64,000 nt of DNA from Scenedesmus sp. ARA3. Its lineage: Eukaryota; Chlorophyta; Chlorophyceae; Sphaeropleales; Scenedesmaceae. Shown one piece after another: positions 1 to 64,000 of the stretch. The stretch covers positions 50,744-114,743 of the forward strand of contig RWJK01001548.1 in the NCBI GenBank assembly GCA_004335835.1, given 5' to 3'. The notes below the pieces were generated by a model, which was not told where the DNA came from, made no database searches, and was given only the letters and a program-made list of their open reading frames with translations. Position numbers and translations under genes: made by a program. How positions within the stretch are numbered: the stretch's first letter is position 1; each line of letters starts with the position of its first letter.

Positions 1-281
1 CCCACAGAACACAACCCAGATGGTATACCAAAATAACCACGTACCGTGCCAAGCACTTCACACAGCATGATATCATGCTAAGCCCAGGCCTGACCAACCA
101 GCTGCATCTCGCATAAAAGCAATGCAGGCAATTCAGCTACATCTACCACTGCAAGAGCGCATGTAGCAGCCATCCCCTGTACTGCTGCTCCTGAAAGCAT
201 CGGCATCACAGCAACGCCCACACTGCTACCTCCTGCTCAAAGGTGGTGCCAAACTGGGTCATGCATGCTGGCACAAGGTTA

Positions 282-397
282 AACGCTGACAGGCGCTCCA
301 CCCCATGCTGCGCCCAGCTCGCTGAGCTTTACACAGCCCAGGAAGACTGCTGCTGCAGCTGCTGCTGAACCCTACACTCTGGGCAGCGCGCCATCCC

Positions 398-433
<36 letters not shown>

Positions 434-1990
434 TTAAGGCAGCAATTAAACGCTGACCGGCTCGATTTACGTGCACTGCTGCTGCTGCTGCTGCTGTTGC
501 TACAGTGGGCAGTCATCTCACACCTGCCGTTCATGCTTTACACGCTGACCGGCTCGCCATCCCAGGCCGCGCCCAGCTCGCTGAGCTTTACGTGGGCCAG
601 GGCATAGTCAGCAAAGAAGGCTGCCTCATCTTCGGCATACTTCTCAGCGAACGGCCTGCGGCAGCAGCAGTAGGAACAGAAGTGCCATGCACATCAGTGT
701 CAGGGCCAGAGAGTATTCCGCAAAACAAGCTGCCTTGGCATCAGCATACTGCTCAGCAAACAGCCTGAAGAGGCAGCAGCAGCAGCAGTGGCAGTGTCAA
801 GAGCAGACGCTTCTGAGCAGATCTGCTGTCAGTGACAGAGTAGCGCGCCCCCGATAACCGCTGCAGCGGCAACAGCAGCTTTGCAACGGCGTGTGTTGTT
901 GCGCAGTGCCAATACCCTTGTCACACAACACACATGTAACATGCAAATTAACACCAACCTGAAGGCTGCGTCCTCGAAGACAGCAGCATTCGTGGGCAGC
1001 ACCAGCAGCTCCCCATTGCTCTGCACCTTCACATCGTTGAAGTAGGCGTTGTTTTAAAACAACCAATTTGTTGTAACGTGGAACACCAGCCACGTGTTAC
1101 TTGACATCCATCCTTGTGACATCCACACAACCCTGTTGACATAGTATGACAAGGAAAATGACGCCCACCTGAACGCATCATCATCGAAGACAGCCGCATC
1201 TGTGGGCAGCACCAGCAGCTCGTCATCACTCTTCTTCTTGACGTCCTTGAAGTAGGCGTTGTTGAACACCAGCCAGTCCGCGGTCCAGGACTGGCCGCCA
1301 GGCTTACCCGGGCCATCTTTTGTGTACTTGGTCTCCTCCTTGCCTGCAGATGATAATCAACAACAGCAGACAAACTGTTGGTTGAAGTAGGTTGCTATAT
1401 ATCAAACAGTCGGCGGTCCAGGACTGGCCGCCCGGCTTGCCAGGGCCATCCTTGGTGTACATGGTCTCCTCCTTGCCTGCAGACACCAGTGTGGGTTCAT
1501 AGTTCTTGTTTTAGAGAAAGCAGTTCATAGTGCCGTTGAACACCAGTCCACAGGCAGAGACTGGCCACCGGGCTTACCCGGGCCATCCTTGGTGTACTTG
1601 GTCTCCTCCTTGCCTGCATGTACAAGTAAAAGCAAAAGCTTTTACAAACACCTTGAGGGTTTTTGTTCTAGAGGAGGCAGCGTTTTGGAACGCCAGCCAG
1701 CCGTTCCAATACTGGCCACCCGGGCCGTCCTTGGTGTACTTGGTCTCCTCCTTGCCTGCAGGCAGTACAATGAAAGCGCCGCAACGTTGTCAGGGAAGCC
1801 CATGCGGCAAAGTTTTAATCAACACAATGAGATCTGCAGTGCGAACATGAGTGCACACAACACAACAGAATAGAAAGTGACCTGCAGTTGCCAGTTCATT
1901 CATCCCATACAATGCGCTCTGGCTGCGCCCTGCCCAGCGTGTGTGCGCCAAACAATGCCACGACCTCCTTGTCGTTGAAGCCCATGCACC
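282..1990 (-). repeat. Other APX exon-end copies (exons 6, 7 and 8)
   Basis: Copies of the exon 6 donor end ([19 protein letters not shown] plus GTGAGTG) lie at about 2104-2185 and 1907-1990; the latter is degenerate. Copies of the exon 7 acceptor end (KYTKDGPG(K)PGGQSW) lie at 1428-1480, 1568-1617 and 1690-1760. One copy of the exon 7 donor end ([17 protein letters not shown]) is at 953-1056. Exon 8 has one acceptor-side copy at 718-772 and stop-side copies (KLSELGAAW, then PVSV and TAA) at 282-345 and 443-470. Confidence 0.85.
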
Positions 1991-3530
1991 CCACCAAAAA
2001 ATATGCTGCCGACAGAACCAGACACATAAACAAAATCTAGACAGTAGTTTGACTGCAAGACACAGCTGCGGACACTTGCTTGGCGCCTTTGTTATTTCAC
2101 TCACCCCAGCCTGAGCGCTCTGGCCTTGCCCTGCCCAGCATATGTGCTCCACTCAGTGCCACGATCTCCTTGTCAGATAGCTACATGCAGCCAGGATTCC
2201 CACAGTTAACATGATTTTATCTTGGCTAAAGAGCGCAGACACCACAAACGAGCTAGAAAGCGAGCTGCAGGTGACGTTCACTCACCCCAGCCTGAGCGCT
2301 CTGGCCTTGCCCTGCCGAGCGTGTGCGCGCCACTCAGCGCGACAATCTCCTTGTCGTTCAGGCCCATGCGCCCGAAGATGTGGCGCAGGTGCTGCGCAGG
2401 CGACACTGACCCCTCAGGGAACGGGTGGCCCGCGGCTGCATGCAGGAAGCAGTGCAAGGATTGATTGTTTGTCAGTAAGCGCAGCTGGCATGTATGCCCA
2501 GAGGTGTGGCGCAGGTGCTGCGCTGAACTGACAGACCCCTCAGGAAAAGGGTGGCCCGCGGCTGCATGCAGGAAGCAGTGCAAGGATGTGTTCTTTGTCA
2601 GATTCAGAGTTGGTGCAGTTGGCCTATGCCCGAAGGTGTGGCGCAAGTGCTGCGCCGGGCTGACAGAGCCCTCAGGAACGGGCGGCTCGCGGCTGCATGC
2701 AGCAAGCAGTGCAAGGGTTGATTGTTGTCAGTGCGCGCAGCTGGCATGTATGTGCGGAGATGTGGCCCAGATGCTGTGCCGGACAGAGCCCTCTGGGAAT
2801 GGTTAGCCGGCGGCCGCATGAAGGAAATTGAAGTATGGCAGCAGTGGCAGCGGCAGCGGCAGCAACAGCAGCACGGCAGCATGTGAGAGGCCCTCATGCG
2901 GCCGAAGATGTGGCGCAAGTGCTGCGCTGCCGACACTGATCCCTATGAGAATGGGTGGCCGGCGGCTGCACGGAGACATAGAAAACAGAAAGGTGAGAAG
3001 CAAGTGCAGTTTGGCTAGCGCCGAAGATGTTGCACAAGTGTCGCACTGGTCACATGTAAAATCTTGAAGCAAGGCTGGCTGGCCGCTGCATGAGATCAAC
3101 ACATGCTTTGACAGCTGCCTCACAGGCTGCAATAGCTGAGGCAGGTCTGACGCCCAAGTGTTGTTGAAATGCAACCCAGATACTGCAAATGCTTTGCTGC
3201 TGCTGCACTCACAAGGCAGGTTGCCCTCCTTGGCGCAGTCCTTGGGGTCATTCAATTCCTTGCAGCTGTACCCACGTGTCCATCTTGGCTACCTGCACAA
3301 CCCCAGCACCCAGATGTCCAACCTAAAACCTGAAACCTAAACCAGAGCACTCACAGGGCAGGTTGCCCTCCTTGGCACAGTCCTTAGGGTCGTTCACGTT
3401 CTTGCGGCCGTAGCGCATGGCCAGCTTGGGGCCACCAGCAACCTGCAGCAGCAGCAGCAGCAGCAGCAGCATACAATGGTTCATTGCTTACATGCACAGA
3501 GCATAGCCAGCTTGGGGCCACCAGCAACCT

Positions 3531-3571
<41 letters not shown>

Positions 3572-5007
3572 CAATGGTTCATTGCTTTCATGCACAGCGC
3601 ATAGGCAGCTTGGGGCCATCAGCAACCTGGCGCAGCAGCAGCAGCAGCAGCATCAGCAGCAATGGCAGTGGCAGTGGCAGCAGCAGCGCAGTCAGTAGTA
3701 TCCCAGGGGTCGCTAACGTCTTGGCGCTCGTAGCGCATGGCCAGCTTGGGGCCGCCAGCAACCTGCAGCAGCAGCAGCAGCAGCAGCAGTAGCAGCACAA
3801 ATGTTTGGTGGTGTCTGCATCCTCTCGACAGTAGCGCATGGGCAGCTTGGGGCCGCCAGCAACCTGCAGCAGCGATGGAAATCAAACAACTGTTCATTGA
3901 TAATGATTATATTCACCACTTTTATTGCAACTTCAGCCTCACACCTCCACACCCACTGCACAGGCCATCTGGCACAGGTCAACGCAGGCAAAGGGGCCCT
4001 AGCCAGCACAAGACACCCACACACACCATCTCCTGCCCCGCAATCCTACCACACTGCTGCTGCTCTCTGTCAACAATCGGTGCACCCCTTTGTGGCCTAG
4101 TAATTTGCAACAACAACACCCCAACTGCTCATCATCTGCTAATTTTGCCGAGTCACGCACCTCCACTGCCACCGCTGAGGCCATCTGGTACAGGTCAGCG
4201 CTGACCGCACGGCCCCTCTGAGGCCATCTGGTACAGGTCAGCGCTGACCGCACGGCCCCTCTGAGGCCATCTGGTACAGGTCAGCGCTGACCGCACGGCC
4301 CCTCTGAGGCCATCTGGTACAGGTCAGCGCTGACCGCACGGCCCCTCTGAGGCCATCTGGTACAGGTCAGCGCTGACCGCACGGCCCCTCTGAGGCCAAG
4401 CACCACAGCACACATATCCCCATGCAACGGCTGAATGCAAACCAAGCAGCACGCACCTCCACTGCCACCGCTGAGGCCATCTGGTACAGGTCAGCGTATG
4501 ACACAGCGGGGTACTTGGCCTTGATGGGCTCCATGAGATCAATGGCAGCCTGCAGGCCTGCAAGATAATGCACAAAACATACAATACAAACACGTTACAG
4601 ATGTGTTACAAAAGTGGTACATAGTGGAACTGACGGGTACTTGGCCTTGATGGGCTCCATGAGGTCAATGGCCGCCTGCAGGCCTGCAGAACAGATCAAG
4701 TTGTTTGTGTTTGTGTGTTACACAACATCTGGAATGTGTCACAATACACTAGCCGAGTGTGTGCGTCATCAACAAAGCGAGACAGGGTAAGCTGCCTGAG
4801 CTCAGCATGGCGGCCACCAAGCAGGGCATCCTTGCGGCTTTAGGGCGCCTTCTGTTTTACTTTAGCCACTGCAGACGCTCGAGCCATGGCCATGTGATGC
4901 AAACGGGTTATCGTCACCCTCACCTGCATTGGCGCCATGCCCAATCTCCGGCTTCAGCCGGATGCTGCCGGTGGCACCACCGGCCTTGGGCCAAGCGCCG
5001 CCGTCCT

Positions 5008-5043
<36 letters not shown>

Positions 5044-5782
5044 ATGTGCTCAGTGTGATTATATCTGTTGCTACTCAAGTGTTTTTCAAAGCAGCTGCGT
5101 GTATAAACTATGTAGGTTGCTATTCTATGGCTTAAGCGGCCAGCGTCATCACTTGCTGCAGCAACATCCATCACTACAGATATGGATGGGTTTATTCGTG
5201 GTTTACTTCAAAGCTGTTTTCGCCGCCCACCTTGTCGAAGGTGCCAGCATCATGCCAGCCCAGCCTGATGAGGATGGGGTTGCAGGACTTGGACTGAGCA
5301 GCAGCAGCAGCAGCAGCAGCAGGTGTGAGTCAGCAGCTGGCGCAGAATGTGAGAGTCACGTGTGCAAAGAAACTGTGCTAGTAGGCTTACCGGACAGCAG
5401 CATGCACCAGGACAGTGAAATGTGCATCAAAAAAGATAACCTTTGTGATGCAGGTCATCAAACTCCTCTATGCATGCATGCATGGGCGCATGGCAGCTAG
5501 CAGTGCTGCTGCTGCTGCTGCTGCCTCTGGCAAGTCACACGGCAGCCTTGCACACCACATACACCCATTTGTCCCGTTGTCCGGAACATTCAAAAGCCCA
5601 AATGCATGCTTTTTACATCAAAGGCTGCTCACCCTGATCAGATCCTCGATGTCCTTCTTTGCAGATCGCAGCTGCTCCACGTTTGCTGCTGCACGAACCA
5701 CCACGGTGCGAGGCTTCCGCACAGATCCGGCCCTGCCGTAGCCATGAACAGCAGTCCTGCTACTCGCGTGTGATAGCTGCAT
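538..5782 (-). CDS. APX: Chloroplast (stromal-type) L-ascorbate peroxidase, 8 exons
   Basis: Haem peroxidase that reduces H2O2 with ascorbate, here in the chloroplast. I rebuilt exons at 5782-5633, 5293-5231, 5005-4924, 4557-4457, 3442-3355, 2435-2286, 1343-1169 and 655-538. All junctions are GT-AG and phases close to 308 aa ending in TAA. Residues 1-30 look like a transit peptide ([16 protein letters not shown], then VVVRAAA). Distal site RLGWHDAGT gives Arg60, Trp63 and His64; proximal His199 sits in [18 protein letters not shown]; the K+/haem-side block is [15 protein letters not shown], then [11 protein letters not shown]. The C-terminus GEPVSV has no membrane segment, so a soluble isoform is likely rather than a thylakoid-bound one. 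An in-frame ATG at 5854 would add 24 residues; I prefer 5782 because the transit-like composition begins there. Every intron downstream of exon 3 carries partial exon copies, listed separately. The gene is divergent from the rhodanese gene. Confidence 0.93.
2495..3091 (-). repeat. Serial copies of the 5' end of APX exon 6
   Basis: At least four copies, at about 2495-2568, 2622-2697, 2750-2818 and 2899-2970, plus a decayed fifth at 3020-3091. They repeat the start of exon 6 ([11 protein letters not shown], then AQHLRH) and the intron end preceding it. All lie upstream of the real exon at 2435. They diverge by substitutions and small indels, for example AGHPFPEG against GHPFSxG-like variants, so they are not identical assembly duplicates. 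Confidence 0.88.
3500..3863 (-). repeat. Serial copies of the 5' end of APX exon 5
   Basis: Copies whose acceptor-proximal bases lie at 3863, 3762, 3626 and 3528 each encode VAGGPKL(A/P)M(R) on the minus strand. Most are preceded by a (CTG)n tract and CAG. The real exon starts at 3442. The copy at 3762 runs further into the exon ([10 protein letters not shown]). A matching copy of the exon's 3' end ([13 protein letters not shown] followed by a GTGAGT donor) is at about 3205-3260, downstream of the exon. Confidence 0.88.
4175..4396 (-). repeat. 43-bp tandem repeat derived from APX exon 4
   Basis: Five head-to-tail units begin at 4175, 4218, 4261, 4304 and 4347, with a partial unit at 4390, all exactly 43 bp apart and nearly identical. 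Each unit carries on the minus strand the coding segment for ADLYQMAS from exon 4 (4557-4457). The array lies in the intron just downstream of that exon. Unit length is not a multiple of three, and the exon's donor is replaced by unit sequence. The homogeneity suggests recent slippage or unequal exchange. Confidence 0.92.
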
Positions 5783-41789: not shown

Positions 41790-41822
<33 letters not shown>

Positions 41823-46638: not shown

Positions 46639-46672
<34 letters not shown>

Positions 46673-47157: not shown

Positions 47158-47203
<46 letters not shown>

Positions 47204-47522: not shown

Positions 47523-47621
<99 letters not shown>

Positions 47622-48007: not shown

Positions 48008-48053
<46 letters not shown>

Positions 48054-48287: not shown

Positions 48288-48344
<57 letters not shown>

Positions 48345-51300: not shown

Positions 51301-53098
51301 TGTGGCAGCGTATTGCTGTTGTGCTGTGTGATGCAGCAGACTTTGTGTGTGGTGTGCAGCGCTGCCTGCTGCACAGACGTGCAGTGGTACAATGCCTGCC
51401 TTACACTGTGGTTTTGCTTTTGCTTTTTGCTTTTGCTTTTGCTTTTGCTTTTGCTTTTGCTTTTGCTTTGCTTTGCTTTGCTTTGCTTTGCTTCGCAAGC
51501 TGGGGTGATGAAGCGACGATGTGGGCGGTGCCTGCGCAAGATGAAGGAGCGATACAGCCTCGCAGACGTGATTGTTTTGGAGTGTTTGAGACACTGCATG
51601 GTGGCATCCTTAAATGCACGGACTGAGTTTGGCGGTTGTGCTAACACCAATTGGTTGGTGCGAGGATGTCTGCTTGAGATAAGATAACGAAAGCTGTGGC
51701 TGTGGCTGCTGCTGCTGCTGCTGCAGGATTGAAAGATTGAGTTGCACCACTTTAGCTTCATTTGACTGCTGCTGTCGATGCTGCTGTTGCTGCTACTGCT
51801 GCTGCCACTCTGCTTGCCCTCTGCAGATGCGCAAGGCTGCCAACCGCATGAACTTTGACTTCAACGTGGCTGAGGACGAGTACATTGACGGCGACGAGGT
51901 GGTCGGCCTCGGGTCAATTAACAAGGAGGGCAGCGGGCGGCTGCGCCTGGTGGCCAGCCAGCAGAAGGTGAGATGCTGCATTCTTCAATATATGTTGCTG
52001 ATTGCCGCGGTGTGGGGGTGTTGAGCGATGCAGCGTTGCGACGGCAGCGTGTGACCGCGCCGTGTGTCTGTTTCAGCAGACAATGAGGGCGCAGTAGTTT
52101 AAGATTCGAGGGTTTGATTGTGACGAGGTGGTGGGCCTGAGCAGCATCAACAAACATCAACAAGGACGGCAGCGGGCGGCTGCGCCTCGTGGCCAGGCAG
52201 CAGACAGTGAGCTGCCACAGCGACAGGCGTAGGGCAGCAGCGCAGGGGTTTTCAATCATTCTAAACGCGCACTGCGGAGGGCCGGATGTGCCTCAGCGGC
52301 TAGCCAGCAGACGGGCCAGCAGAGGTGAGAGTACCCCGCTGTGAGCGCTGCTGACCGCTCCACTTCTGCCGCCGTCGCTGCTGCCACTGCTGCTTCTGCT
52401 GCTGCGTGGCAACAGGTGCGGCTCAACGCCAAGCAGGAGAAGAAGTACCGTGCGCGCCTGGCGCCCGGAGCAGCCACCAGCGGCCTCAGCAGCACGCTGG
52501 CCTTCACTCCCGTGCAGGTTATGAGTGTTTCAACTCATAGAGAAACCCTGGTGATAAAGAAGCGTCACATTAGAAAATGTTGCAGCCATCAGCAGCGTAA
52601 GCAGCATGCTGGCTTGACACCAGCGCAGGCGAGCAGAATGAGGTTGTGCGGAGCAAGATCCTGTGCTTCAGTAAAGTGACTGCAATGATTTGTGCAGCCA
52701 TCAGCGGGCTTAGCAGCACCCATGCTGCTGCCCCCACCCAACGCCTGCAGGGGCTCTGAGCTGGCCACTCCCTCCAGCGTGCTGACGATGTTTCCCTGCT
52801 GTTGCTTCTGCTATTGCTGCTGCTGCTCCCTCCAAAACCCACAGGGCTTTGAGCTGGCCACCCCCTTCAGCGTGCTCACAGTCAATTTTTCATGTTGCCA
52901 TCAAATCTACCATCAAACCTGTGCGCTGAAAGTGTGCTGCTGCTGCTGCTGCTACTGCCGCTGCCACCCTCCCCCCTGCAGGGCTTTGAGCTGGCCACTC
53001 CCTCCAGTGTGCTCACTGAGGGCGAGCAGGGCAGGGGCGGCAATGAGAGCTACTTCAGCGAGTTTGGCGGCTTCAGGTCACTGCACAAGACCAAGTGA
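46118..53098 (+). CDS. PRP31: U4/U6 snRNP splicing factor PRP31 homologue, 11 exons
   Basis: PRP31 bridges U4/U6 and U5 in the tri-snRNP. Exons 46118-46240, 47626-47712, 48066-48142, 48364-48475, 49180-49398, 49758-49898, 50329-50523, 51117-51281, 51827-51967, 52416-52517 and 52982-53098 give 492 aa with TGA, close to the about 500 aa usual for the family. Diagnostic blocks: N-terminal [80 protein letters not shown] and [13 protein letters not shown] (Nop domain core, which binds U4/15.5K); [36 protein letters not shown]. The C-terminus is [17 protein letters not shown]. The start at 46118 (MFPACAESF) is the weakest point: CAG|AGTCG there could be an acceptor from an upstream exon. Most introns carry exon-end copies. 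Confidence 0.93.
46315..46512 (+). repeat. Two copies of the PRP31 exon 1 end
   Basis: At about 46318-46386 and 46445-46512, sequence encoding SDGEAMQ(G/E)DGEGDGL(E/D)K is followed by GTGGGC or GTGGGT. It repeats the acidic end of the first coding exon ([16 protein letters not shown] plus GTGGGT). Both lie downstream of the exon and are separated by (CAG)n. Confidence 0.85.
47510..47625 (+). repeat. (CTG)n tract abutting a PRP31 splice acceptor
   Basis: About 38 CTG/GCT units end in CTCTGCAG directly before exon 2 (47626). The tract reads as polyalanine in one frame, but the exon boundary shown by family similarity ([18 protein letters not shown]) places it in the intron. Similar tracts precede the acceptors at 48066, 48364 and elsewhere. 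Confidence 0.85.
48536..49024 (+). repeat. PRP31 exon 4 end copies (three) and exon 5 start copy
   Basis: Segments at 48536-48585, 48650-48716 and 48767-48815 encode [31 protein letters not shown] and [13 protein letters not shown], each followed by a GTGxGT site. The 48650 copy repeats more than 20 intron bases after the donor exactly. A copy of the exon 5 start ([20 protein letters not shown]) at about 48932-49024 precedes the real acceptor at 49180. Confidence 0.9.
49444..52206 (+). repeat. Other PRP31 intronic exon-end copies
   Basis: Two copies of the exon 6 start ([15 protein letters not shown] at 49594; [14 protein letters not shown] at 49672); one copy of the exon 6 end ([19 protein letters not shown]) at 50005-50098; a partial copy of exon 7 at about 50617-50670; copies of the exon 8 start ([20 protein letters not shown]) at 50681-50730 and 50890-50985; an exon 8 end copy ([14 protein letters not shown]) at 51520-51570; and an exon 9 end copy at 52118-52206. 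Confidence 0.85.
51417..51496 (+). repeat. (TTTTGC)n/(TTTGC)n microsatellite
   Basis: A pyrimidine-rich hexamer/pentamer array in a PRP31 intron, just before a copied segment of exon 8. Confidence 0.95.
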
Positions 53099-53114: not shown

Positions 53115-53158
<44 letters not shown>

Positions 53159-53509
53159 GACAGTAGGAGCAGCAGCAGCAGCAGCAGCAGCAGCGAGTTT
53201 GGTGGCTTCAGGTTGCTGCACAAGGCCAAGTGAGGCTGTTGTTCAGCGGGCTTGGACGCTTTGGGTCCTTGCACATGGCCAGGTGACAGCACTGCTGCAG
53301 CGGTAGCGGCAGTGAGTTTGGCGGCTTCAGGGTGCTACACAAGGGCAAGTTACAAGCATCATCATGCTGTCATTCCAGCTACAGTAACTATGAACAGCGT
53401 CAACTGCAATTGGCCAGTGGATTTGGCAGCTGCAGGTCGCTGCACAAGGCCAAGTGACACTCAGCAGCAGCGAGTTTGGTGGCTTCAGGTCGCTGCACAC
53501 GGCCAGGTG
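52745..53509 (+). repeat. PRP31 last-exon copies on both sides
   Basis: Two copies of its start ([10 protein letters not shown] at about 52757, [12 protein letters not shown] at 52850) lie upstream of 52982. After the real stop, about five copies of the C-terminal codons follow at 53190-53233, 53242-53285, 53310-53351, 53415-53457 and 53468-53509. They read SEFGGFRxLHK(A/G/T)K or degenerate forms, several with TGA in the same place. Confidence 0.9.
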
Positions 53510-55614
53510 GTCTGTTGGGCATCATCCCTGGAGCCATGCGCATGCCCCAGAAACGCTGCTGTGGCATTGGCATACGTCAGCATATGTTGCCTAATGAGCC
53601 TGTCATTGGCTCCCCAACGGGCGAGATTACTTGGTTACTTGTGTAACCTCCAAATTGTGAAGCTCATTTTATGTCTATCGAGGTATCGGGTTGGGGCGGA
53701 CGGGTTTTCAATACATAAATGTGAAAATGTGATGATGATGACGAAGGCTCGTTGCCAGTGACGCCTTTCAATGCGTCCAAAATGTTGGTTGCAGCAGCAG
53801 CAACTGCAGCAGCAGCCTGCTACCTGGGGTAGGCAGGACCAGCTCATGATCAGGAGCAGCAGCCGCTGCCGTCTATAGCTAGGTGACAATGCATCTGCAT
53901 CATCTCCCTTGATTGAGCCCACGCGTTGGGCACTTCCTGGCATGTATGCTGTATAGGGTACTCTCCACACTGATGTGAACGATGGGTCTGGTGAAGGATG
54001 GGTTGATGATGCGTGTGGCGTGTCTCATTGCTGGCTTTGTTATTCTCTACAGTGTGGCACACTGCGGCAATGACAAGGCACACAATTCAATATCAAGTGC
54101 GCGTCAAGTTACATGCCAAATGCCTTGCCAAGGACCCTAAGGCAGTGAGTGTTACGACATTGCTGCTGTGGATGCCAACGGTAGGCTACTACTGAGTAGG
54201 CAGGCTATTTCTGGTGGTAGCTCAGCCAGCACTGCTTCGGCACGAAGCAGCAGTGCTGCCGCAGCAGCGGCTCAGTGCAGTCAAACTCCAGTGGCAGTGG
54301 CACTCAATGAGTCACTCATTGCAGTGCAGTGGATGTGGCTTCTGATGCTGATGCTGGTGCTGCGGCTGCCGCTAGTGGAACGATATTGCGGTAGTATTTA
54401 AAAAAGTTACCATAAAAGCATATCGCTGTCGTGCCGGCAGGCTAGGCTGCACAGGGCGACCCTTTGTAATATAACAATGACAAACAACTGCTCACACCGT
54501 GCCCATGTCAGCATGCCCGACTGTACGCGAAACGTGTGCCTGTCAAGAGCGCCAATCTCTGTATTAACGTGATGTGCGTGGACAGTGTTGCTGGCTTGAC
54601 TTGGTCATCCCCATCTTTCAGGTGGGCGTCTTGGAGGGTTCTGCTCAGCAGGCTAAGCAGATTTGCAGCTTTGGGAGTAGTTTCGCTTCAAGGCAGGCCT
54701 GACGTCCGGGCGGTGATAGATGGCAGGTCTTCAACGGTAATATGATGTTGTTGGATAACACAAAGCACCGCACTTGCCCACAAACAGCAGCAGCTATCCT
54801 GCCAACGCTCTGTGCAAGCCCAACTAGGATGAGTCTTCGATGACACATACATGCGCCATGCATGCAATGCTGCTCAATGTGTCTTTCCTTCGCACGCATG
54901 CCAAGCAAACTAGGGACATCTCGAGCAAGGCCGCTGCCTGAAGGCAAGGTGGTTGAGATTGATTACCAAAGTGCTGCTAATCATCAGGCCTGCTGTGCCA
55001 ACACCCGACAAAGCCACACGCAGCGGCAGCATGACCGCAAAATCATGCAACAGTCGCGGGGGGATGCAACTTTGAAGTGCATAGCACAAGCTCCTGCTGG
55101 TTGAGCAACCCTTTCCGAACATCCACCAGCAGCAGCTGACTGCCCTGCTACTGTGACCCAGGCCGCCAACAGTCGGCCAGGCTGAACAAGCCACAACAGC
55201 ATACAACTTCCCGACACACAGATACCTTGAGCCTTTGTATCATTCTTGCTAACCACTTTCTGCACACAACCCCGACGGGCACTTGACCCAGGCTGCAATC
55301 CTGCAGCATGCCAGCAGCCATTCATTCCCATGTGCCCAGCGATGCTGTGCAGCCGCAGCGAGTGATCATCCCGCACACTCCGCCAAGAGATGGCCACACC
55401 ATGCACGCGCGCCCCGCAGCAGCGCCCGCAGCAGCAGCAGCCCTGCTGCAGCACGTTTGCTACACCAGACGCTCCGCTGCTGCTGCAGCAGCTGCCGCAC
55501 ACCTCCTCAGCATCCCCAGCCAGCAGCACGGTCTCCTGCAAGTTTCCTGCAAGCGACTTGCTGTCCTGCAAGCTCCGCAACCTTCCTGCAAGGCCGTGCT
55601 GTTGCGGCGGCTGC
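53510..55614. other. Intergenic region between convergent PRP31 and Rubisco activase
   Basis: No gene recognised. Short ORFs (for example 54013-54195) have no family features. The region should hold both 3' UTRs. Confidence 0.5.
53641..53645 (+). terminator. Candidate polyadenylation signal TGTAA for PRP31
   Basis: TGTAA is the usual chlorophycean poly(A) signal. This copy lies about 540 bp past the PRP31 stop, beyond the C-terminal copies. Placement is inference without transcript data. Confidence 0.3.
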
Positions 55615-58600
55615 TTACTGGGCCGCGTAAGCCTCTGGCATGGAGCTGCCGCCAGATCCTGCCAGCTCAGCGCCTGCCAGGTAGGCATCAGCCAGCTGCA
55701 CACGCTTCACGTTGTCCTGCTCATCCACCAGCTGCTTGCCGTACTTGATCAGGATCTGCAGGACATAACAGATCAGCACAAGAAACCCACAGCAAGGCAG
55801 ACGTCAGAGGAAGGACACGGCAGACAGGCCAGCAGCTGCCAACAGAAGGCACAGCACTCGTGCACTACATGCATGCAGCATGCCTGTCACAGTGTGCCTG
55901 TAACGGCACCAATGCAACATGACAACTGCGGGCCAAGCGCACAACAACGCCGTTACAGTGCACACCTGCTGTGCAGTGCAACTGCATCACTAGGCTGTGT
56001 TTCCTGCAAGCTCTGCAGCCGCCCAAACTGCACCCCATTGCATCAACAATGGCACACACGCCCAGAACTGGCTTGGGCTTGCAGTTGCCCTTCAGTCGCA
56101 GCACACCGCAATCCTAAACTCAAGCCCCAAAACCGCAAGCTTTGAGCCGCACTCGCGTCCAGGGGTATGGCGGGCTTTTCATAGATGACCTTCCTCTCAC
56201 ACGCAGCACACCGCAGACCCAAAACCCCACACCCAAAACCGCAAGCCCTGAGCCGCACTCACGTCCATGGGCATGGCGGGCTTCTCAAAGTTGACCTTGC
56301 CCTCGCGGCTGTTGATGAGGCGCTTGCCGATGTTCTCCACGCCGATGCCGCTGATGAACTCACGCACCTGCAGGGGCACAGCACGAGGTACACAAACTGC
56401 ATGTTAGTGCCTGTGTATGTGTGTCGGTGCATGTATCAGGTGTGAGTGTTCTCCACGCCGATGCCGCTGATGAACTCGCGCACCTGCGCAGGTGTACAAA
56501 AGAAGCAGTTGGCATGTGGAGGCAGCGCGTGTGAGTGCCTGTTCTGTGTGTGTGCGGATCAACACTGGGACAGTTGCAGGTATGGAGGCGCTTGAAGGCA
56601 CTGCACTTGATGCGTGTGTTCCTTCATGCCGCTGACGCTGATGTGTGGCAGCTGTTGGCAGCTGCTGCTGACATGCCTGCCGCTGCTGCTAGTCGCGTGC
56701 GCGCAGCGCTGCCCTCCCCAACCCACTGCACACCAATAACACAAGACAGGCACCAACGTGTTTTCCGCCTCAGATGAGCTCAGCCACGCACCTTATCGTC
56801 ATACACGCGTGCGCGCAGAGCTCCGAAGAAGTCGATGGACTGGCCGGGGAAGGTGTCCACCAGCACCTCCACCTCACCACGGGACACCTTGTCCTCCTGC
56901 ACGTGTGCAATGTGGCGGCAGGGGCAGCAGCAGCAGCAGCAGTAGCGGCAGGAGGGTGGTTAGGCGGCTGAAGTGCACGGTGCCGCCCACAGCTACAGCG
57001 AAACATTGCTGTTCTCCTGTAAGCTGCTGTGAAACAGCTGCTGTGATCCTCGCGCGTGCATGTCCCATGGCATCAAACGCACAGCTGCAGTGAATCTTAG
57101 CATGCATTGCAGAACTTCACACCCTGTTCCCACCAAAAGACCAGAGTTCATGCCTGGTTTCACCTGAAAGATGTCCATGCACACGCCAAACACCCATCTC
57201 TGTTGCTGAAAGTCCCCTTATGACAAGCACAACTGCACTTTTCATGTCAACTGCCAATCGCAGCACATCCTCACCTGGAAGATGCCCATGCACACGCCCA
57301 CGCGGTCCTCGCACGTGCATGTCGCATAAAATCCAACACACAGTTGCGGTACAACAGATGTTCACGCCCTGTTCTCACCTGGAAGATGCCCATGCACACG
57401 CCCACGCGGTCCTCGCGGGTGGGGTTCCAGTAGTACTTCTCCATACGGCCATCACGGATCAGAGGGGCGTACAGGGTAGAGAAGTCGTTACCTGCAAGCA
57501 GCAGCAGCAGCAGCACAACGGCAGGGGAGTTAGAACCGCGCATGCAAAAGCGTACCAGACATTGCAGCAGTGCGGCAGGTGCAGCTGCGCTGCTGCTAGG
57601 CATGGGGCTTTGCAGAGCCCGCACACATGTGCACAGTATTAGCAGCCCAGCCCAGCCCAGCACGACCCTGCCAGTTTTGCTCCTGGCAAAAGCCCTTGCA
57701 CACCCGGCATGTGAGACCAGGCACCACTGCAGCCCAGCTGCTGTGTGCGCACGGAGCTACAGCAACTCCAGCTGCAAACAGATGAGGATGCTGACTCTGG
57801 TGAATTTGCTGTTGTGGACCCAATTGCACCTGTGCAGATGGCGGGCACGCGGAACGTGCAGCTGTATGAATGCTGCTATGCGAACGGCTGCTGTATACCA
57901 TCCAAGCCTGAGCGCACCTGTGCAGATGATGGGCACGCGGGGGATCTCCTCGTTCTTGTACACGCCTGGCAGCTGCACGTTGGTGGGGTTGTCGGCAATG
58001 TTCATGAGCGTGGCGTTGACCATCTGGTTGTTGACCGTGTACTGCGTGGACTCGCCCATGCGGCCTGCTCCGGCATCCAGATCGTTGATGAACAGCGCGC
58101 ACATCTTGCCCTTCTTGATCTGGTCAGACGCCTCCCTGCACGCGAATAACAACACGGCAGAAGAGTAAACACCAGAAAACGTCAGCACAGGTCGTTGAAG
58201 AACAGCACAACCATCTTGCCCTTCTTGATCTGGTCAGACGCCTCCCTGCGCACAAATGACAACACGGCAGAACACTTAGACGCAGAAAGAGCCAGCACAG
58301 ATCGTTGATGAACAGCGCGCACATCTTGCCCTTCTTGATCTGGTCAGACGCCTCCCCGCGCACACACATGACAACACAGCAGAAGAAAAAGAAGCAGAAA
58401 ACGGCACAGGTCGTTGATGAACAGCGCGCACATCTCGCCCTTCTTGATTTGGTTGGACGCCTCCCTGCAGACGCAGAGGGACACGAAAAATGCGACCCCC
58501 CAGCACCACAGCTGGAGGACGATGATGTATCACTGCAAGCATACTGTGTGCTGCGCTGGCTGACTGTTGCCTCAATGCTACATTGCAGTGCGGCTGCGCT

Positions 58601-58901: not shown

Positions 58902-61262
58902 TGAGACAATGCCCAGCTTCTTGAAGGCCAGCGCGCACTGGGAGGTCTTACCCTGCAGCCAATAACAAGGATGGGAGCAGCAGCAGTAGCAGCAGCAGTG
59001 TGAGATAATGCCCAGCTTCTTGAAGGCAGCGCGCACTGGAAGGTCTTACCCTGCAGTCAATAACAAAGGTGGGAGCAGCAGTAGTAGCAGCAGCAGTGTG
59101 AGATAATGCCCAGCTGCTTGAAGGCCAGAGCGCACTGGAAGGTCTTACCCTGTGGGTGCAGAGACGCAGGGCAGCAGCAGCAGCAGCAGCAGCGTGAGTA
59201 AAGCGGCAACAGCTGCAAGGCAGCACACACTGGGGAGCCTTGCCCTGCACACGCCACTGGCAGCAGCACTGGATGCTGACATAGGAACACAAGGCAGCAG
59301 GTGCAAAAGCAGCCGCTTGCTACAGCTTGCTGATACCCAGCAGCCCCTAAAGAACCAAAACAAAGTCCGCGCACCTGTCCATTGCCGCCCCAGACACCCG
59401 GGATGTGCGGCACCTGGACCTTGTGCAGCCTCACACCACAACCTGTTTAGACGCAAGCGTTGGAGGTTAAAACATTTACACTGCCCCAGGCCGCACCTGT
59501 CCCTTGCCTCCCCAGATACCCAGGATGAGGGGCACCTTGATCTTGGGCAGGTCCATGAAGTTCTTGGCCACGTGGATGGTGATCTTGTCCAGGAAAGCAG
59601 GAGAGATGTAGAAGCCTGTGTGTTATAACAGCACATGTAACACAGCGGAAGCAGCAGCAGCAGCAGCAGCGTGGGTGAGATACAGGTCGTAGCCACATGG
59701 ATGGCAATCTTGTCCAGAAAAGCGGGTGACATGTAGAATCATGTGTTGAAATGGCACATGTAACAAGCAGCAGCAGCGACAGCAGCGGCAGCAATTAGGG
59801 TGAGCTGTGGGCAGCAACATGATCAAGACAAGGCACCAAAGCAGCTCAGCCACACCCCTGTGCTGCAAGAGCAGCGGCAGCGGCAGCTGCAGCGAAATCC
59901 TGCAAGCTGGTCAACGTGGATGCCGACCATGCGCTGACGCTGTGCAGCAGCAGCAAGCTGTCGACACACACCAGGCAGCGATGCCAGCGTTGCGCGCATA
60001 CTCCCTGTACATATGAATGCATACATGCAGCCATGATATCAGGAGCAGGAGCAGCAGCAGCAGCAACGCACCATCCTCGATGTTGTTGAAGGTCTTGGCT
60101 GCCTGGCTCAGGTAGTCGCTGCTGTTCATGACGGCATTGGCAGTGCCGGCGGTGCCGCCCCAGCCCTGGAACAGCTCGTCAACCATGCCGCGGCCACGCG
60201 CAATGTCTTGCTGCAGACATTAAGCAAAAGACAAGACAGGAACACATGATGGTGTCAGGCATGCTGATAGCTGGAGAATCGAAACAAGGGACGCCAGGTG
60301 CCGCCCCAGCCCTGGAACAGCTCGTCCTGCCGTGGCCATGCCGTGGCCATGCCGTGGCCATGCGCAATGTCTTGTTGCAGGGTTAAAAGAAGAGGATTCA
60401 GCGCAACACAGGAGGTCAGGATGGGCAGAGGATTCCTGCAGAGCAGATGCTGTAAACTTGCAGGATGGCTGTGTGTAGCCCTAGTTGAATAACAAGCGGA
60501 AATGCCAGCGTTGGCCCAGCGAGGTTGGATGCAGCAGCCTTATAGCCACAGCCATTGCTACACAGAGGGTATGCCTTGCTACACAGAGGGTATTGTAGCG
60601 CACGACAGCGTGAGCAGGAAGCTGCTGAGTTGCAGGTGCTGCTGCTCCTGCAAATCAAAAGCTCCAGCCTGCCTGACAGCTGTCTGTTGGATCCCCAATT
60701 ACTACTGCTATAGATAAGCCCACAACAATCGAAGCCTCGGTGCCAATGCGTCAGATGGCACATCGAGGTGGCCAACAATCAGCAGGAAACTGCAACGCCG
60801 GTGTGGGCTCTGCTGCTCCCCCTCGAAAGCAAACTGCTTGCCCTCAAACAAACGACGTATACAAGATATATTTGCTGATGATCCATGGACAATGCAGTGC
60901 CTCATTGCACCAGGGCAACTCCTCCCGCGACTGGACCCTTCTGCTGCCTCGCACCTGGTCATCGGATTGGTCGTTGCCGGCATCCATCGCACTCCAGCGA
61001 CCCTTCTGGGACTTGCTGGCCTGAACAGGTGCGACGCGGACCTACGCAAAGCAGAACAAATTGCACGGGCCGAGTTTGAGTGGGGTGCTACCGAACAGAC
61101 GATGCAGTGCACCTAAAGCCCAATTGGCGGCCAGACCAATACTGATCAAGTATACATGCTACAATGGTCGTCTGTAGAGCACCACATCACTTCTAGGCAG
61201 CTCACCTGCTTCACGGCAGTGCGTGCAGCGCATGGGCGCTGCCCAGCAATGCTGCGAGGCAT
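55615..61262 (-). CDS. RCA: Chloroplast Rubisco activase, 10 exons
   Basis: AAA+ ATPase that removes sugar-phosphate inhibitors from Rubisco in the stroma. Exons 61262-61206, 61020-60955, 60210-60072, 59615-59497, 58847-58723, 58135-57918, 57491-57379, 56896-56792, 56367-56263 and 55755-55615 close to 395 aa with TAA. ATG 61262 follows an in-frame [22 protein letters not shown] is a short transit peptide. Then [16 protein letters not shown] (Rubisco-interacting N-domain), [19 protein letters not shown], Walker A GGKGQ|GKT (about 123-130, split by an intron), Walker [14 protein letters not shown] (about 181-193), [18 protein letters not shown], sensor [11 protein letters not shown], and [18 protein letters not shown]. 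The C-terminus [16 protein letters not shown] lacks the redox Cys extension of plant alpha isoforms, as in the short form. Introns contain many exon-end copies. Confidence 0.95.
56165..57325 (-). repeat. Exon-end copies around the activase C-terminal exons
   Basis: Two copies of the end of the exon at 57491-57379 ([13 protein letters not shown] plus GTGAGG at about 57270-57320; a decayed one at 57160-57195); a copy of the start of the 56367 exon ([12 protein letters not shown]) at 56440-56490; and a copy of its end (EKPAIPLD plus GCGAGT) at 56157-56200. Confidence 0.85.
58184..58468 (-). repeat. Three copies of the start of the activase Walker B exon
   Basis: Segments at about 58184-58249, 58295-58358 and 58410-58468 encode EAS(D/N)QIKKGKMxxLFxNDL up to the codons of Walker B, each preceded by CAGGGAGG-type acceptor sequence. 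They lie upstream of the real exon at 58135. Differences include [10 protein letters not shown] and [12 protein letters not shown]. Confidence 0.92.
58900..59250 (-). repeat. Four copies of the start of the activase P-loop exon
   Basis: Copies at about 58900-58953, 59005-59052, 59105-59155 and 59215-59250 encode GKT(F/S)[11 protein letters not shown] or decayed versions. The second has a 1-nt deletion. Each begins with GGTAAGACC-like sequence and follows a (CTG)n or pyrimidine tract with CAG, upstream of the real exon at 58847. Confidence 0.92.
59370..60395 (-). repeat. Exon-end copies around activase exons 3 and 4
   Basis: A copy of the exon 4 start ([16 protein letters not shown]) lies at 59690-59740; a copy of its end ([16 protein letters not shown] plus GTGCGC) at 59370-59422; and a copy of the exon 3 start ([20 protein letters not shown]) at 60300-60380, which carries a further local triplication of GGCCATGCCGT. 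Confidence 0.87.
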
Positions 61263-62026
61263 GAAAACTTATATTAGGACAAACTGTTTGCTTCGACGGG
61301 GTCCAGTATCAAAATTGAGCAGCATAGCCCACCTCTTCTGGCCTGCAAGCTGCATGATGCTGCTTTTCAGGAGAGTATGGAGGAAACGGCAGTGATAAAG
61401 GTGAAAATTTCGTGACCAGCGAAACGCAAAGGTGCCGTGCCGACTACTGGTGACCGGACAAGTAAGCTGGGACCAAGTCTACTATAACGAGCTAAACCCT
61501 CTGCATTGACTGCATGTGAAGCAAAGGCGGGTTTATCACCTTTCATTATCCATTTGAACGCTCATCAGGCAGCCAGACGGTAGGGAGGCACGTGTTGCTC
61601 CAGTCACCGGGCCGGATCGTTCGCAGCAATGTGCAGCCAGGCTACAGAGCAGCTGATGGATGAGTATGCTTTGAGCAATGTGCTTTTGCATGATGGGTGC
61701 CAGTGTAGGTGTCTGTGGTGGGCTGCAGTTCGCAGTGGATGATGTCACCTCTGTACAGCCTGACCCCACTGCGCACACTGTGCCACTGCGCCGCACCATG
61801 GGGTATGGTGAGCCACCAACCAGATGGGGAAATTCTTCGAAATTAGTATATTACATCATTCCTCATGCGGGTTATAGCGCCCTGGTACCACGACAGCATC
61901 AGTTTTTTCGTACCCAGTTTGCATTGCACAACAATGGTTGCAACGCCGCATTGGGGCGGCCCCAGTGGGGCCCCGCAACTTGCGGGCAGCTGAGCTGGCA
62001 CCGTGCGGCTGCGGCCGCCGCGTGAC
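61263..62026. other. Activase upstream region
   Basis: About 760 bp upstream of the activase ATG, between two genes transcribed in the same direction. Presumably holds the light-regulated activase promoter, but I see no motif I can name with confidence. Confidence 0.35.
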
Positions 62027-62748
62027 GTGCAGTTGCACTTCACGTACCCTTCTGTAACGAGCCATCCTTCAAAAATAATACACAAATCATGATTCCTGCA
62101 AGCTGCGCAATCTTTGTGCCCCCCATCATGTAATCATTACATCATCACCAGTCACTGGTGGTGACCACGGTGGTGACGCAACAAATGGTGGGCACCCATT
62201 CGCTGCCACGCCTTCATCATCGTCATTTTAACCCATCAAGCCACAGGGCTGCAACGCCTTGTTCCGAGTCCTGCAAGGTGTGTACTCTTCGTGCCTGCCG
62301 CATTGTAGAACAGAAGGTGGGCCCCCGCAAGCTGCACAGCAGCCGCCTCCTGACGTGCAATGACAGCCTTCTATCATAGAAGGCCATGATGACCAGCCTA
62401 CATTCAAGCACAAACCACACGCTGTGATTCCTGCAAACTGCTACTCTGCGCATGTGTGCCCGCCGAGTTGCTCATCCAAAGGTGGCCAATCACAAGTTGC
62501 CACTACTGCTGCATGACTTGCAGTGACACTTCATGCAACCTTCTGCATATAGCCCTCATTCTGGCGCAAATTACATCCATGTTTCCTGCAGGCTGTGTAT
62601 CTGTGCCAGCTGTCATGCACATCCCAAGGTAGCCCATCATAAACTGCCACCGCCGCTGCTTGACTTTTGCAGTGACACTATGCACGTCTCATCATTTAAA
62701 TCTCAGTTTGGCCCGCACACAAGCCCCCTGCGTATCTTAGCTGCTGTT
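62027..62748. repeat. Degenerate tandem repeat of about 150 bp downstream of the MYND gene
   Basis: Recurrent landmarks in order: TGACGTGCAGTTGCACTTCA / TGACGTGCAATGACA / TGACTTGCAGTGACACTTCA / TGACTTTTGCAGTGACACTA at about 62026, 62352, 62514 and 62661, each followed by GATTCCTGCAA(G/A)CTG-like sequence at 62089, 62437 and 62580. Copies are strongly diverged. They follow the MYND gene's stop (minus strand), so they may be 3' UTR-derived. Confidence 0.6.
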
Positions 62749-63925
62749 CTACGTTGCTGCTGCCTCCGCTGCTGCTGTAGCTGCTGCGGCTGGCATGGCC
62801 TTGTCCTTGCACAGCGCCTTGTGCCACTTCCAGTGCTCCACCTGGCAGGCCTTGCAGCAGTACCTGAAAAGACAGCGGCAGCAGTAGCAGCAGCAGCATT
62901 CCGGCAGCATAGTAACTGGTGGCATCAACATTATCAAGAGGTTGCTAAACTCGACCCAGCGTCAGGCCAGCAAGCCTGACTGCAGCGCACGCTCAGCACA
63001 CCAAATGGGGCACCCTGCAGGAAGGCACAAGCCAAAAGCATACTGCCGGCAATAGGGAGGTGTGCTGCGGCCTTGTAGACTGGCACATGCTAAATGATAA
63101 CAACTGCTGCCAGCCAAACTCCGCCTAACTTGCGGCCAACATTGCGCCACTCACCTTGCTTCCAGCGGGCGCACACGCAGCTCTTGCCACCCACCAGCAG
63201 CAGCTCGCTGCGCTGCGCCAGGCTCACGCAGCCAGGGTTGTTGCAGGCTGTGCTGAGCGGGATGCCACTGCCTGCGCACAGCTCAGCAGCTGCTGCGGCA
63301 GCTGCACCTCCTGCAGGCCTGCCAGCAGCTGCTGCAGGGCGGTAGGCTCCGCAGCTGCTGATGCGTTATCGTGTTGCGCAGTCAGCGCCCCAAGTGCTGC
63401 TGCCTGCTGCTCCAGCCGCTGCAGCAGCTGCTGCAGCACGTCTGTTGCTATGCCACACATACACAGGTAGTTGCGCAGCGCATCCACGCAGCTCCCACCC
63501 CACCACACCAGAAACAAGATCATCTCCCTCAGTGCACTTAGGGGCAGCAGCTGCTGCTGGGTGGCGTCGGCATCAGCCGCTTCACAACTGCCAGGTGTAG
63601 GTGTTGGAGGCTGCTGAACATGACACACTACAGCCTCCAGTGCACTGGCCATCACAAACAAGCAGCGGCTCAGCAGTGCTACCCACTGTGCAGCAGCCCC
63701 ACCACCTACAGCAGCAAATGCTGCTGCTGCTGCTGCTGCTGCTGCTAGCTCAGCTTGGCTTGCTTGCTGCTGGCTGCCTGTCACTGCCTGGCCACTGCTG
63801 GAGCTGATGGTGCCGCTGTTGCTGCTAACGCTGCTGATGCGGCATGCCTGCTCCATGACTGCAGTCAGCACTGAGCAGCTTGAGAACATGACGCGGCCTG
63901 CTATGCTGAACAAGGAGTGAAGCAT
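62749..63925 (-). CDS. MYND-type zinc-finger protein, partial model
   Basis: A long ORF (63925-63224) with helical, Ala/Leu-rich sequence (DALRNYLCMCGIATDVLQQL, RLEQQAAALGALTAQHDN) leads into a MYND region typical of algal proteins. CNNPGCVSLAQRSELLLVGG and KSCVCARWK are at about 63240-63156, and YCCKACQVEHWKWHKALC is in the last exon (62863-62749, TAG). These supply the Cys/His ligands of a C6HC zinc finger, a protein-interaction module. The frame of the CNNPGC segment differs from the long ORF just upstream, and the phase at 63155 does not fit the last exon. An exon is missing from my model, or the gene has indels. The 5' end may lie beyond the window. Confidence 0.6.
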
Positions 63926-64000
63926 GTGTGGCTCATGTTAGATACTATGTGGAGCACGCTCCACCTTTTGACTTTTTGACTTTTTGCAAAAAGCGCCAAA

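What the first reader, a model, noticed from the sequence alone, without database searches (positions are those of the whole stretch)
1..64000. Window-wide splice-junction stuttering: exon ends copied serially into neighbouring introns
Nine of ten genes carry diverged partial copies of their own exons inside adjacent introns; I count more than 50. The rule is consistent. Copies of an exon 5' end, with the preceding acceptor, lie upstream of the real exon. Copies of an exon 3' end, with the donor, lie downstream. This is what repeated tandem duplication of segments spanning intron-exon junctions would leave, with only the outermost complete combination kept as coding. Substitutions and indels differ between copies, so they are not simple assembly duplicates. 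Each retained AG or GT is a potential decoy or alternative splice site. I know of no description of such a genome-wide architecture.
Basis: partly seen in the sequence, partly recalled or inferred. Interest (0 to 1): 0.92.

Follow-up and report, generated by a model that had tools for sequence, protein, structure and literature searches.

The report
Exon ends stuttered into neighbouring introns
In this green alga the ends of exons, with their splice sites, have been copied again and again into the introns beside them, leaving introns studded with decaying partial exons, which may be a way in which introns grow.

Summary
In three window genes modelled from relatives' proteins (PRP31, Rubisco activase, ascorbate peroxidase) I find 62 partial exon copies. 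All 29 acceptor-type copies lie upstream of their exon, all 27 that cross the exon's 3' edge lie downstream, and all 62 lie in the adjacent intron or flank. Two unlinked chaperonin genes repeat it (18 of 18 donor copies downstream; 15 of 17 acceptor copies upstream, two ambiguous). Twelve of 16 sampled 10-kb stretches hold local direct repeats; none holds inverted ones. The organism is Tetradesmus obliquus or a close relative.

Copies decay neutrally: private changes are roughly even over codon positions (30/41/43), against 0/1/12 in real exons. Two things go beyond random tandem duplication. Of 66 repeat pairs none is intron-only inside a gene, and none of 20 conserved elements taken as intronless has such copies. 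Between copies, the exon-derived part is more alike than the intron part beside it in 21 of 22 families.

Best reading: junction-anchored serial duplication, with the real exon later overwriting its copies. Why junctions are targeted is unexplained, and my simulations do not reproduce it. Annotated T. obliquus proteins include one copy in frame.

The parts
541..5782 (-). APX gene, 8 coding exons (5633-5782, 5231-5293, 4924-5005, 4457-4557, 3355-3442, 2286-2435, 1169-1343, 541-655)
   Evidence: Spliced alignment to T. obliquus P0241, 308 of 308 aa
4635..4688 (-). APX exon 4: copy of the 5' part with acceptor, upstream of the exon
   Evidence: 47/49 exon identity, AG kept
3942..4372 (-). APX exon 4: two 3'-part copies with donor (3942-3984, 4154-4200) and four units of a 43-bp array (4208-4372)
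3498..3873 (-). APX exon 5: four 5'-part copies with acceptor
3205..3288 (-). APX exon 5: 3'-part copy with donor
2496..2970 (-). APX exon 6: four 5'-part copies with acceptor side (AG kept in three)
1849..2174 (-). APX exon 6: two 3'-part copies with donor side (GT kept in one)
1382..1761 (-). APX exon 7: three 5'-part copies with acceptor, 133-142 nt apart
939..1053 (-). APX exon 7: 3'-part copy with donor
703..788 (-). APX exon 8: 5'-part copy with acceptor
279..332 (-). APX last exon: copy of its 3' edge, beyond the stop codon
12483..13722 (+). bZIP-like exon with 5'-part copies upstream and 3'-part copies downstream (not modelled)
   Evidence: repeats, fragments; name given by me from the translated fragments, no call
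26871..29944 (+). Exon-end arrays of an unnamed gene (not modelled)
46118..53095 (+). PRP31 gene, 11 coding exons
   Evidence: Spliced alignment to P0001, 492 of 492 aa
46317..46574 (+). PRP31 exon 1: two 3'-part copies with donor
47814..47846 (+). PRP31 exon 2: 3'-part copy with donor
48533..48838 (+). PRP31 exon 4: three 3'-part copies with donor, 108-119 nt apart
48895..49025 (+). PRP31 exon 5: 5'-part copy with acceptor (84/93)
49489..49708 (+). PRP31 exon 6: three 5'-part copies with acceptor side, 79-81 nt apart (AG kept in two)
50015..50216 (+). PRP31 exon 6: two 3'-part copies with donor
50608..50724 (+). Interior copies: PRP31 exon 7 (50608-50671) and exon 8 (50669-50724)
50888..50974 (+). 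PRP31 exon 8: 5'-part copy with acceptor
51511..51571 (+). PRP31 exon 8: 3'-part copy with donor
52156..52215 (+). PRP31 exon 9: 3'-part copy with donor
52582..52629 (+). PRP31 exon 10: 3'-part copy reaching the donor's first base
52723..52879 (+). PRP31 exon 11: two 5'-part copies with acceptor
53191..53517 (+). PRP31 exon 11: four copies of its 3' edge, beyond the stop codon
55618..61355 (-). Rubisco activase gene, 11 coding exons
   Evidence: Spliced alignment to T. obliquus P0122, 406 of 406 aa
60297..60380 (-). RCA exon 4: 5'-part copy, acceptor AG changed to AA
59684..59792 (-). RCA exon 5: 5'-part copy, acceptor AG lost
59370..59428 (-). RCA exon 5: 3'-part copy with donor
58909..59193 (-). 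RCA exon 6: three 5'-part copies with acceptor, 98-102 nt apart
58188..58469 (-). RCA exon 7: three 5'-part copies, about 110 nt apart (AG kept in two); 58432-58464 aligns to the extra 11-aa exon of T. obliquus P0121
57826..57852 (-). RCA exon 7: 3'-part copy with donor
57142..57312 (-). RCA exon 8: two 3'-part copies with donor (one 38/38)
56447..56487 (-). RCA exon 10: 5'-part copy with acceptor
56097..56198 (-). RCA exon 10: 3'-part copy, donor GT changed to GC

Best explanation
Introns of this alga grow by serial, direct duplication of segments, mostly 75-160 bp apart, that straddle an exon-intron junction. A duplication that takes part of an exon and part of the intron is harmless as long as the outer, complete junction is the one spliced, so partial exons pile up on the intron side (shown: orientation, position, spacing, neutral decay). 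The arrays stay anchored on exon ends because the functional exon keeps overwriting the exon-derived part of its copies by short-tract gene conversion, while the intron part drifts; the shared exon homology then also allows units to be added or lost by unequal exchange (inferred from exon-derived parts being younger than their flanks). Why new copies start at splice junctions and not at ends of intronless genes is not shown; something tied to introns or splicing must either favour the founding duplication there or be the only place that tolerates it. The copies themselves are neutral debris that may occasionally be spliced in.
For: Position rule without exception in three genes and in CCT1/CCT5 apart from two ambiguous hits. 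Family-specific spacings and a whole-unit array of seven units. 66 repeat pairs at strict threshold in the three gene regions: 49 exon-copy, 16 copy-copy, 1 neither, which lies outside APX. With exons and copies masked, 9 direct pairs at E<=1e-3, 8 of them flanks touching junction blocks at both ends, 0 inverted. 0 of 20 conserved elements taken as intronless have a local partial copy, against 29 of 54 splice-junction ends. Copy private changes by codon position 30/41/43 (chi-square p 0.28), real exon 0/1/12; 16 of 19 indel runs in copies break frame, four of these being the same gap in units of one array. Copy-copy divergence 0.130 in the exon part against 0.451 in the intron part, lower in 20 of 20 families, 21 of 22 with two families added later. 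Six copies whose first 30 exon nt are perfect have flank identities of only 0.50-0.77. Copies with and without detectable intron homology have the same exon divergence.
Against: In the 27 copies with alignable intron flank, intron substitutions (0.170) equal twice the copy's own exon divergence (0.085), which simple neutral decay explains without conversion, though BLAST picks the best-matching stretches. Flanks are force-aligned, so non-homologous flanks inflate the intron value; one family of 22, the CCT5 exon 2 acceptor, goes the other way (exon 0.302, intron 0.200). Simulations with uniform founding plus conversion and exchange do not reach the observed absence of intron-only repeats (52 intron-only to 66 exon-copy and 25 copy-copy pairs); smaller runs with more deletion gave 2:16:12 and 3:9:1, so the result depends on parameters. 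Conversion alone does not explain why the intronless controls lack copies. No conversion event was seen directly.
Confidence: 0.5

Rival explanations
1. Random local tandem duplication everywhere, filtered by selection: only duplications that leave the outermost junction coding survive, and copies of exons stay recognisable because the real exon is conserved. This is.
For: Explains the position rule by geometry alone; young whole-unit arrays exist; in alignable flanks the intron divergence is twice the copy divergence, as expected; detection of intron parts is weak (3 flank pairs at the strict threshold; 8 at E<=1e-3), so some intron-only repeats may be missed.
Against: Simulation gives 272 intron-only to 101 exon-copy pairs; even scaled by the measured power (8 detectable flanks, times about 1.9 for geometry, my arithmetic) about 15 intron-only pairs are expected and at most 1 is seen at E<=1e-3; at E<=1 four of 17 near direct pairs do not touch junction blocks, against three inverted ones. 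0 of 20 intronless controls. Exon parts of copies less diverged than flanks in 21 of 22 families.
Confidence: 0.22
2. The copies are functional alternative or decoy exons kept by selection, used for regulated splicing.
For: Annotated T. obliquus Rubisco activase proteins P0121 and P0123 contain an in-frame 11-aa repeat; P0121 aligns it to the copy at 58432-58464; P0122, with the same locus name as P0123, lacks it. Most copies keep AG or GT.
Against: Changes in copies are roughly even over codon positions, 16 of 19 indel runs break frame, AG/GT retention (37/44, 36/40) is about what 8% neutral divergence leaves; only 2 of 117 RCA homologues examined carry the extra stretch, both T. obliquus. 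Whether RNA supports that isoform was not seen.
Confidence: 0.08
3. Splicing-linked or RNA-templated writing: exon ends with their splice motif are repeatedly copied into the intron by a process that acts on pre-mRNA or on spliceosome-bound nascent transcripts.
For: Restriction to intron-bearing genes in what was examined; 24 of 51 copies at true splice junctions stop 1-13 nt into the intron, with exon divergence like the rest.
Confidence: 0.12
4. Assembly artefact: pieces of other haplotypes or reads chained between exons.
For: The assembly has 1567 contigs, and the window and sampled stretches hold runs of N; spacing is near short-read length.
Against: T. obliquus annotations from contigs of 4.1-4.4 Mb carry an RCA copy at the same exon; PRP31 of Scenedesmus sp. 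NREL 46B-D3 holds a repeat-like insert after exon 8 (by eye); copies are partial, direct, ordered by one rule and neutrally decayed; genes on unlinked contigs show it.
Confidence: 0.04

Closest known systems
[quoted passage not shown] vertebrate ATP2A1; potato RdRp case, PMC4974935; review PMC3443670; passages seen)
   Same: Direct duplication of a segment carrying splice signals, in the classic model with the protein unchanged; the potato case duplicated an upstream intron-exon structure, i.e. a junction.
   Different: There a new intron is born, classically from an exonic AGGT segment, so that the copy of the downstream exon would lie next to the upstream exon (my inference). Here existing introns are enlarged and copies lie next to their own exon (52 of 57), serially and in each of the five genes modelled.
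[quoted passage not shown] recalled, cited in the passages)
   Same: Local duplication inside genes.
   Different: As recalled, units there are coding segments; here units are exon ends plus junction and do not add coding sequence to the modelled protein.
Fission yeast 24-bp AGGT tandem arrays spanned by an intron (described in the passages)
   Same: An intron lying across several tandem copies.
   Different: Two genes and an exonic 24-bp unit; here units are longer, often with intron flank, in all five genes modelled.
Introners and introner-like elements (PMC9860276, PMC4457414; search listings with start of abstract only)
   Same: Many intron sequences produced by one recurring process.
   Different: Introners are copies of one element in many genes; here all 124 direct pairs of the window lie within 4 kb of each other and each family matches its own exon.
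Intronic minisatellites (general knowledge)
   Same: Head-to-tail arrays with a family-specific period.
   Different: The unit is anchored on an exon end and the functional exon is one member of the array.

Membership tests
[quoted passage not shown]
   Copies carry acceptor plus exon or exon plus donor, often with intron flank, and lie beside their own exon (52 of 57), not beside the opposite one
[quoted passage not shown]
   No genomic DNA of relatives was held; only their proteins
Tandem (minisatellite-like) arrays | Direct, head-to-tail, regular spacing | tested here: met
   Direct; spacings such as 110/109/110, 81/81/79, 102/98/99; seven-unit array. Not every family: 31 families, some with a single copy or uneven spacing
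Introner elements | Related copies in many unlinked genes | tested here: inconclusive
   Within the window 124 of 124 direct pairs are local and 0 pairs further than 3 kb apart in 16 ten-kb stretches; no genome-wide cross-gene search was made
Alternative or mutually exclusive exons | Copies under coding constraint | tested here: not met
   Private changes 30/41/43 over codon positions; 16 of 19 indel runs break frame
Alternative or mutually exclusive exons | Copies spliced into mRNA | tested here: inconclusive
   Annotated T. obliquus RCA proteins contain a copy; P0001, a PRP31 protein from a short contig, contains none; no RNA reads available
Gene conversion between tandem repeats | Part of the unit homogenised while the rest drifts | tested here: inconclusive
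   Exon part less diverged than intron part between copies in 21 of 22 families; but alignable flanks alone fit neutral decay

The most novel reading that the evidence does not exclude
A splice-junction-targeted process repeatedly writes exon ends with their splice motifs into the adjacent introns and keeps them fresh from the functional exon, so that constrained exons act as immortal seeds of arrays; it is a continuing, genome-wide engine of intron growth in Scenedesmaceae and absent from intronless genes.
Probability: 0.35. Interest if true: 0.85.

Novelty: new variant of a known kind. Interest (0 to 1): 0.72.

Why it matters
How introns lengthen without transposons is poorly known. Here exon-derived copies make up 3,026 of 14,340 intron bp in three genes (21%), and 4,461 bp lie in some local repeat. 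T. obliquus is reported with long introns (462 bp on average) and only 15.7% coding sequence, against 44.0% in Raphidocelis (passages of PMC5966456); the process seen here could be part of the cause. Each array is also a record of duplication with the functional exon as built-in reference, and a natural test of how the spliceosome picks the right site among near-identical ones. Gene predictors are likely to be misled by it.

Tried and rejected
Any conserved element seeds copies: disfavoured by 0 of 20 controls (6 of 62 tRNA matches, 6 of 22 histone matches, 2 of 2 U2, 3 of 3 U6, 2 of 2 U5, 1 of 3 U4). Limits: flanks are about 330 nt for the last six and cut by contig ends or N for some tRNAs; two histone pairs are neighbours on one contig; the histone genes are taken as intronless because one open frame spans the matched domain, and ends outside the match were not checked. 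Four control loci (L031, L034, L035, L039) hold repeats that do not involve the element, some inverted.

Whole-intron duplication or AGGT intron birth: rejected by the position of copies.

CTG/CAG tracts as the cause: tracts border some units (PRP31 exon 6, APX exon 5) but not RCA exons 7 and 8 or APX exon 7, so not general.

Coding selection on copies: rejected.

Uniform founding plus conversion and exchange as a sufficient model: not shown.

A Pfam scan of three forward frames of 6-16 kb gave nothing; I did not name the unmodelled genes by any search. ARAGORN found no tRNA in the window or in 19 loci. The Pfam search for Cpn60_TCP1 served only to place chaperonin genes. L027 (CCT8-like by my reading) was scanned for repeats but not modelled.

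Rows left out of counts: terminal-exon 3' edges from the donor and class counts; copies under 65% ungapped identity; two of nine chaperonin families with at least two copies at a known junction, added, where one contradicts the rule; families with one copy cannot enter the copy-copy test. The CCT1 exon 7 acceptor was taken from the GCAG before the aligned segment.

Literature: ten searches listed no paper that, by title and start of abstract, describes this architecture; two of them returned nothing. Of three papers I saw passages; the rest are listings. Most subscription journals are outside the library.


Full report
What the window is. It lies in an 87.3-Mb assembly of 1567 contigs. The best protein matches are algal: PRP31 is 99% identical to an unnamed protein on a contig of at most 1,792 bases (P0001) and 78% to Scenedesmus sp. 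NREL 46B-D3; Rubisco activase is 95-98% and ascorbate peroxidase, with a roughly assembled query, 89% identical to Tetradesmus obliquus. I take it to be T. obliquus or a near relative.

The observation. With short-period repeats masked, the window has 124 direct repeat pairs, all within 4 kb, and 5 inverted ones, of which the three local ones are palindromes matching themselves. Spliced alignment of relatives' proteins gave models over the full length of the reference for PRP31 (11 exons), RCA (11) and APX (8). Searching each exon with 80-nt flanks against its own gene gave 62 copies. All 29 that cross the acceptor lie upstream of the exon, all 27 that cross the exon's 3' edge lie downstream, six are interior; all lie in the adjacent intron or gene flank. 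Five of the 27 are at the ends of terminal coding exons, beyond the stop codon; in PRP31 that stop overlaps a GTGAG that could be a donor (inference), so these five may or may not be splice junctions. Three short minus-strand hits were also listed. 25 of 54 splice-junction ends have no copy.

Elsewhere in the genome. Twelve of 16 sampled 10-kb stretches contain local direct repeats (81 pairs in all); none contains inverted pairs or pairs more than 3 kb apart (one stretch is 46% and one 80% N, and four of 20 requested places did not exist). Chaperonin genes on three other contigs carry 24-41 local direct pairs each. Modelled with human sequence as guide, CCT1 and CCT5 give 47 copies: 18 of 18 donor copies downstream, 15 of 17 acceptor copies upstream, and 12 whose alignment crosses no known junction. 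The two exceptions concern a 25-nt end segment where the aligner cannot tell which of three copies is the exon.

What happens to copies. Exon against copy, divergence is 0.077, 0.088 and 0.197 at codon positions 1, 2 and 3, and 16 of 19 indel runs break frame, four of them the same gap in one array. In families with at least two usable copies, private changes fall 30/41/43 over the three positions in copies (chi-square p 0.28) and 0/1/12 in the real exon. Copies are therefore unconstrained, the exon is constrained. Copy-copy divergence at positions 1 and 2 (0.16-0.17) is twice that of exon-copy (0.084), so copies behave as independent branches from the exon. AG is kept in 37 of 44 and GT in 36 of 40 copies (terminal exons and the two ambiguous hits left out); neutral decay at 8% leaves about 84% (my arithmetic).

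Beyond simple duplication. First, intron-only repeats: at the strict threshold the three gene regions hold 66 pairs: 49 exon-copy, 16 copy-copy and one of neither kind, which lies outside APX. A simulation of uniform duplication with the same filter gives 272 intron-only to 101 exon-copy and 82 copy-copy. Power matters: masking exons and copies, only 3 flank pairs (and the one outside) remain visible at that threshold, and at E<=1e-3 nine direct and no inverted pairs, eight of which touch junction blocks at both ends. Scaling by that power I expect about 15 intron-only pairs (my arithmetic) and see at most one; at E<=1, 17 direct and 3 inverted pairs lie within 600 nt and 13 of the direct ones touch junction blocks. 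Second, conserved elements taken as intronless: 0 of 20 show a local partial copy, against 29 of 54 splice-junction ends; if the rates were equal and the elements independent, even one end per element would give a chance of 2e-7. Third, age: of 51 copies at true junctions, 27 keep at least 20 nt of intron homology and 24 keep 13 nt or less, yet both groups have the same exon divergence (0.085 and 0.074 at positions 1+2). Between copies, the exon part differs by 0.130 and the intron part by 0.451, the exon part being lower in 20 of 20 families (Wilcoxon p = 1.9e-6). I had left two chaperonin families out; one agrees and one, the CCT5 exon 2 acceptor, does not (0.302 and 0.200), so the count is 21 of 22. 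Flanks are force-aligned there, but the same holds in two arrays whose units are homologous throughout (CCT5 exon 8: 0.072 and 0.180; CCT1 exon 7: 0.123 and 0.366). In RCA exon 7 one copy equals the exon over 58 of 58 nt while its flank differs at 15 of 71 positions.

Against this reading: in the flanks that BLAST can align, intron divergence (0.170) is just twice 0.085, as plain decay predicts; 10 of 29 short-flank copies show flank homology at p<=0.05, so some junction-ended copies are only decayed. Simulations that add conversion and unequal exchange to uniform founding raise the exon-anchored share but leave many intron-only pairs (intron-only: exon-copy: copy-copy 52:66:25; conversion alone 66:45:16; no recombination 43:28:12). 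Smaller runs with more deletion gave 2:16:12 and 3:9:1, and 16:3:4 without recombination. Recombination alone is therefore not shown to be sufficient, and a junction bias in founding or tolerance remains needed.

Mechanism. I commit to: founding direct duplication across a junction; the outer complete junction kept; exon-derived parts refreshed from the functional exon; units gained and lost by exchange anchored on exon homology; intron parts drifting. The first, second and last steps rest on direct evidence, the third on the age contrast, the fourth on spacing. The reason for junction specificity is open; RNA-linked copying or splice-motif microhomology are candidates I could not test.

Use of copies. 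T. obliquus proteins P0121 (OEZ85_000162) and P0123 (OEZ86_010292) carry an in-frame repeat [12 protein letters not shown]0121 aligns it to the window copy at 58432-58464 (acceptor GCAG, donor GTGCGC inside the copy); P0122, also named OEZ86_010292, lacks it; 2 of 117 homologues in which the stretch could be matched (of 120 listed) have it. This suggests that the array exists in independent assemblies and that one copy is annotated as an exon; RNA support was not seen. PRP31 of Scenedesmus sp. NREL 46B-D3 holds an insert after exon 8 that looks like another such copy (by eye).

Novelty. Tandem duplication at exon-intron structures is known case by case (PMC4974935, PMC3443670; passages). Junction-anchored serial arrays in gene after gene, with exon parts younger than their flanks, appeared in none of the listings of ten searches. 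I rate it a new variant of a known kind.

Noticed in passing
window 58402-58469: One copy of RCA exon 7 corresponds to an annotated in-frame 11-aa insert in T. obliquus Rubisco activase proteins.
   Followed up: partly
window 37578-38273: A 257-bp array of 2.9 units overlaps the 3' end of a 1258-aa open frame on the minus strand (38095-41871) and runs beyond its stop.
   Followed up: no
window 4164-4398: A nearly perfect 43-bp array (5.2 units) built from the 3' end of APX exon 4; its first units lack the donor: a young secondary expansion.
   Followed up: partly
window 20135-20252: A 38-bp minisatellite (3.1 units, 97%) in a region where I modelled no gene.
   Followed up: no
window 47512-47620, 48009-48052, 48291-48343 and elsewhere: Long CTG/CAG tracts, often just before acceptors.
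   Followed up: partly
L026 7841-8573: Seven-unit array of about 108 nt at the CCT5 exon 8 donor; three neighbouring units have identical intron parts.
   Followed up: yes
window 60297-60380: The RCA exon 4 copy carries a secondary 18-nt internal expansion.
   Followed up: no
window 53095-53517: Four listed copies of the end of the last PRP31 coding exon lie beyond the stop codon; by eye the GT of an overlapping GTGAG is kept in 4 of 4 and the TGA stop in 2 of 4.
   Followed up: partly
L031 27-962: Six local direct pairs near a tRNA gene but not involving it; probably a neighbouring gene.
   Followed up: no
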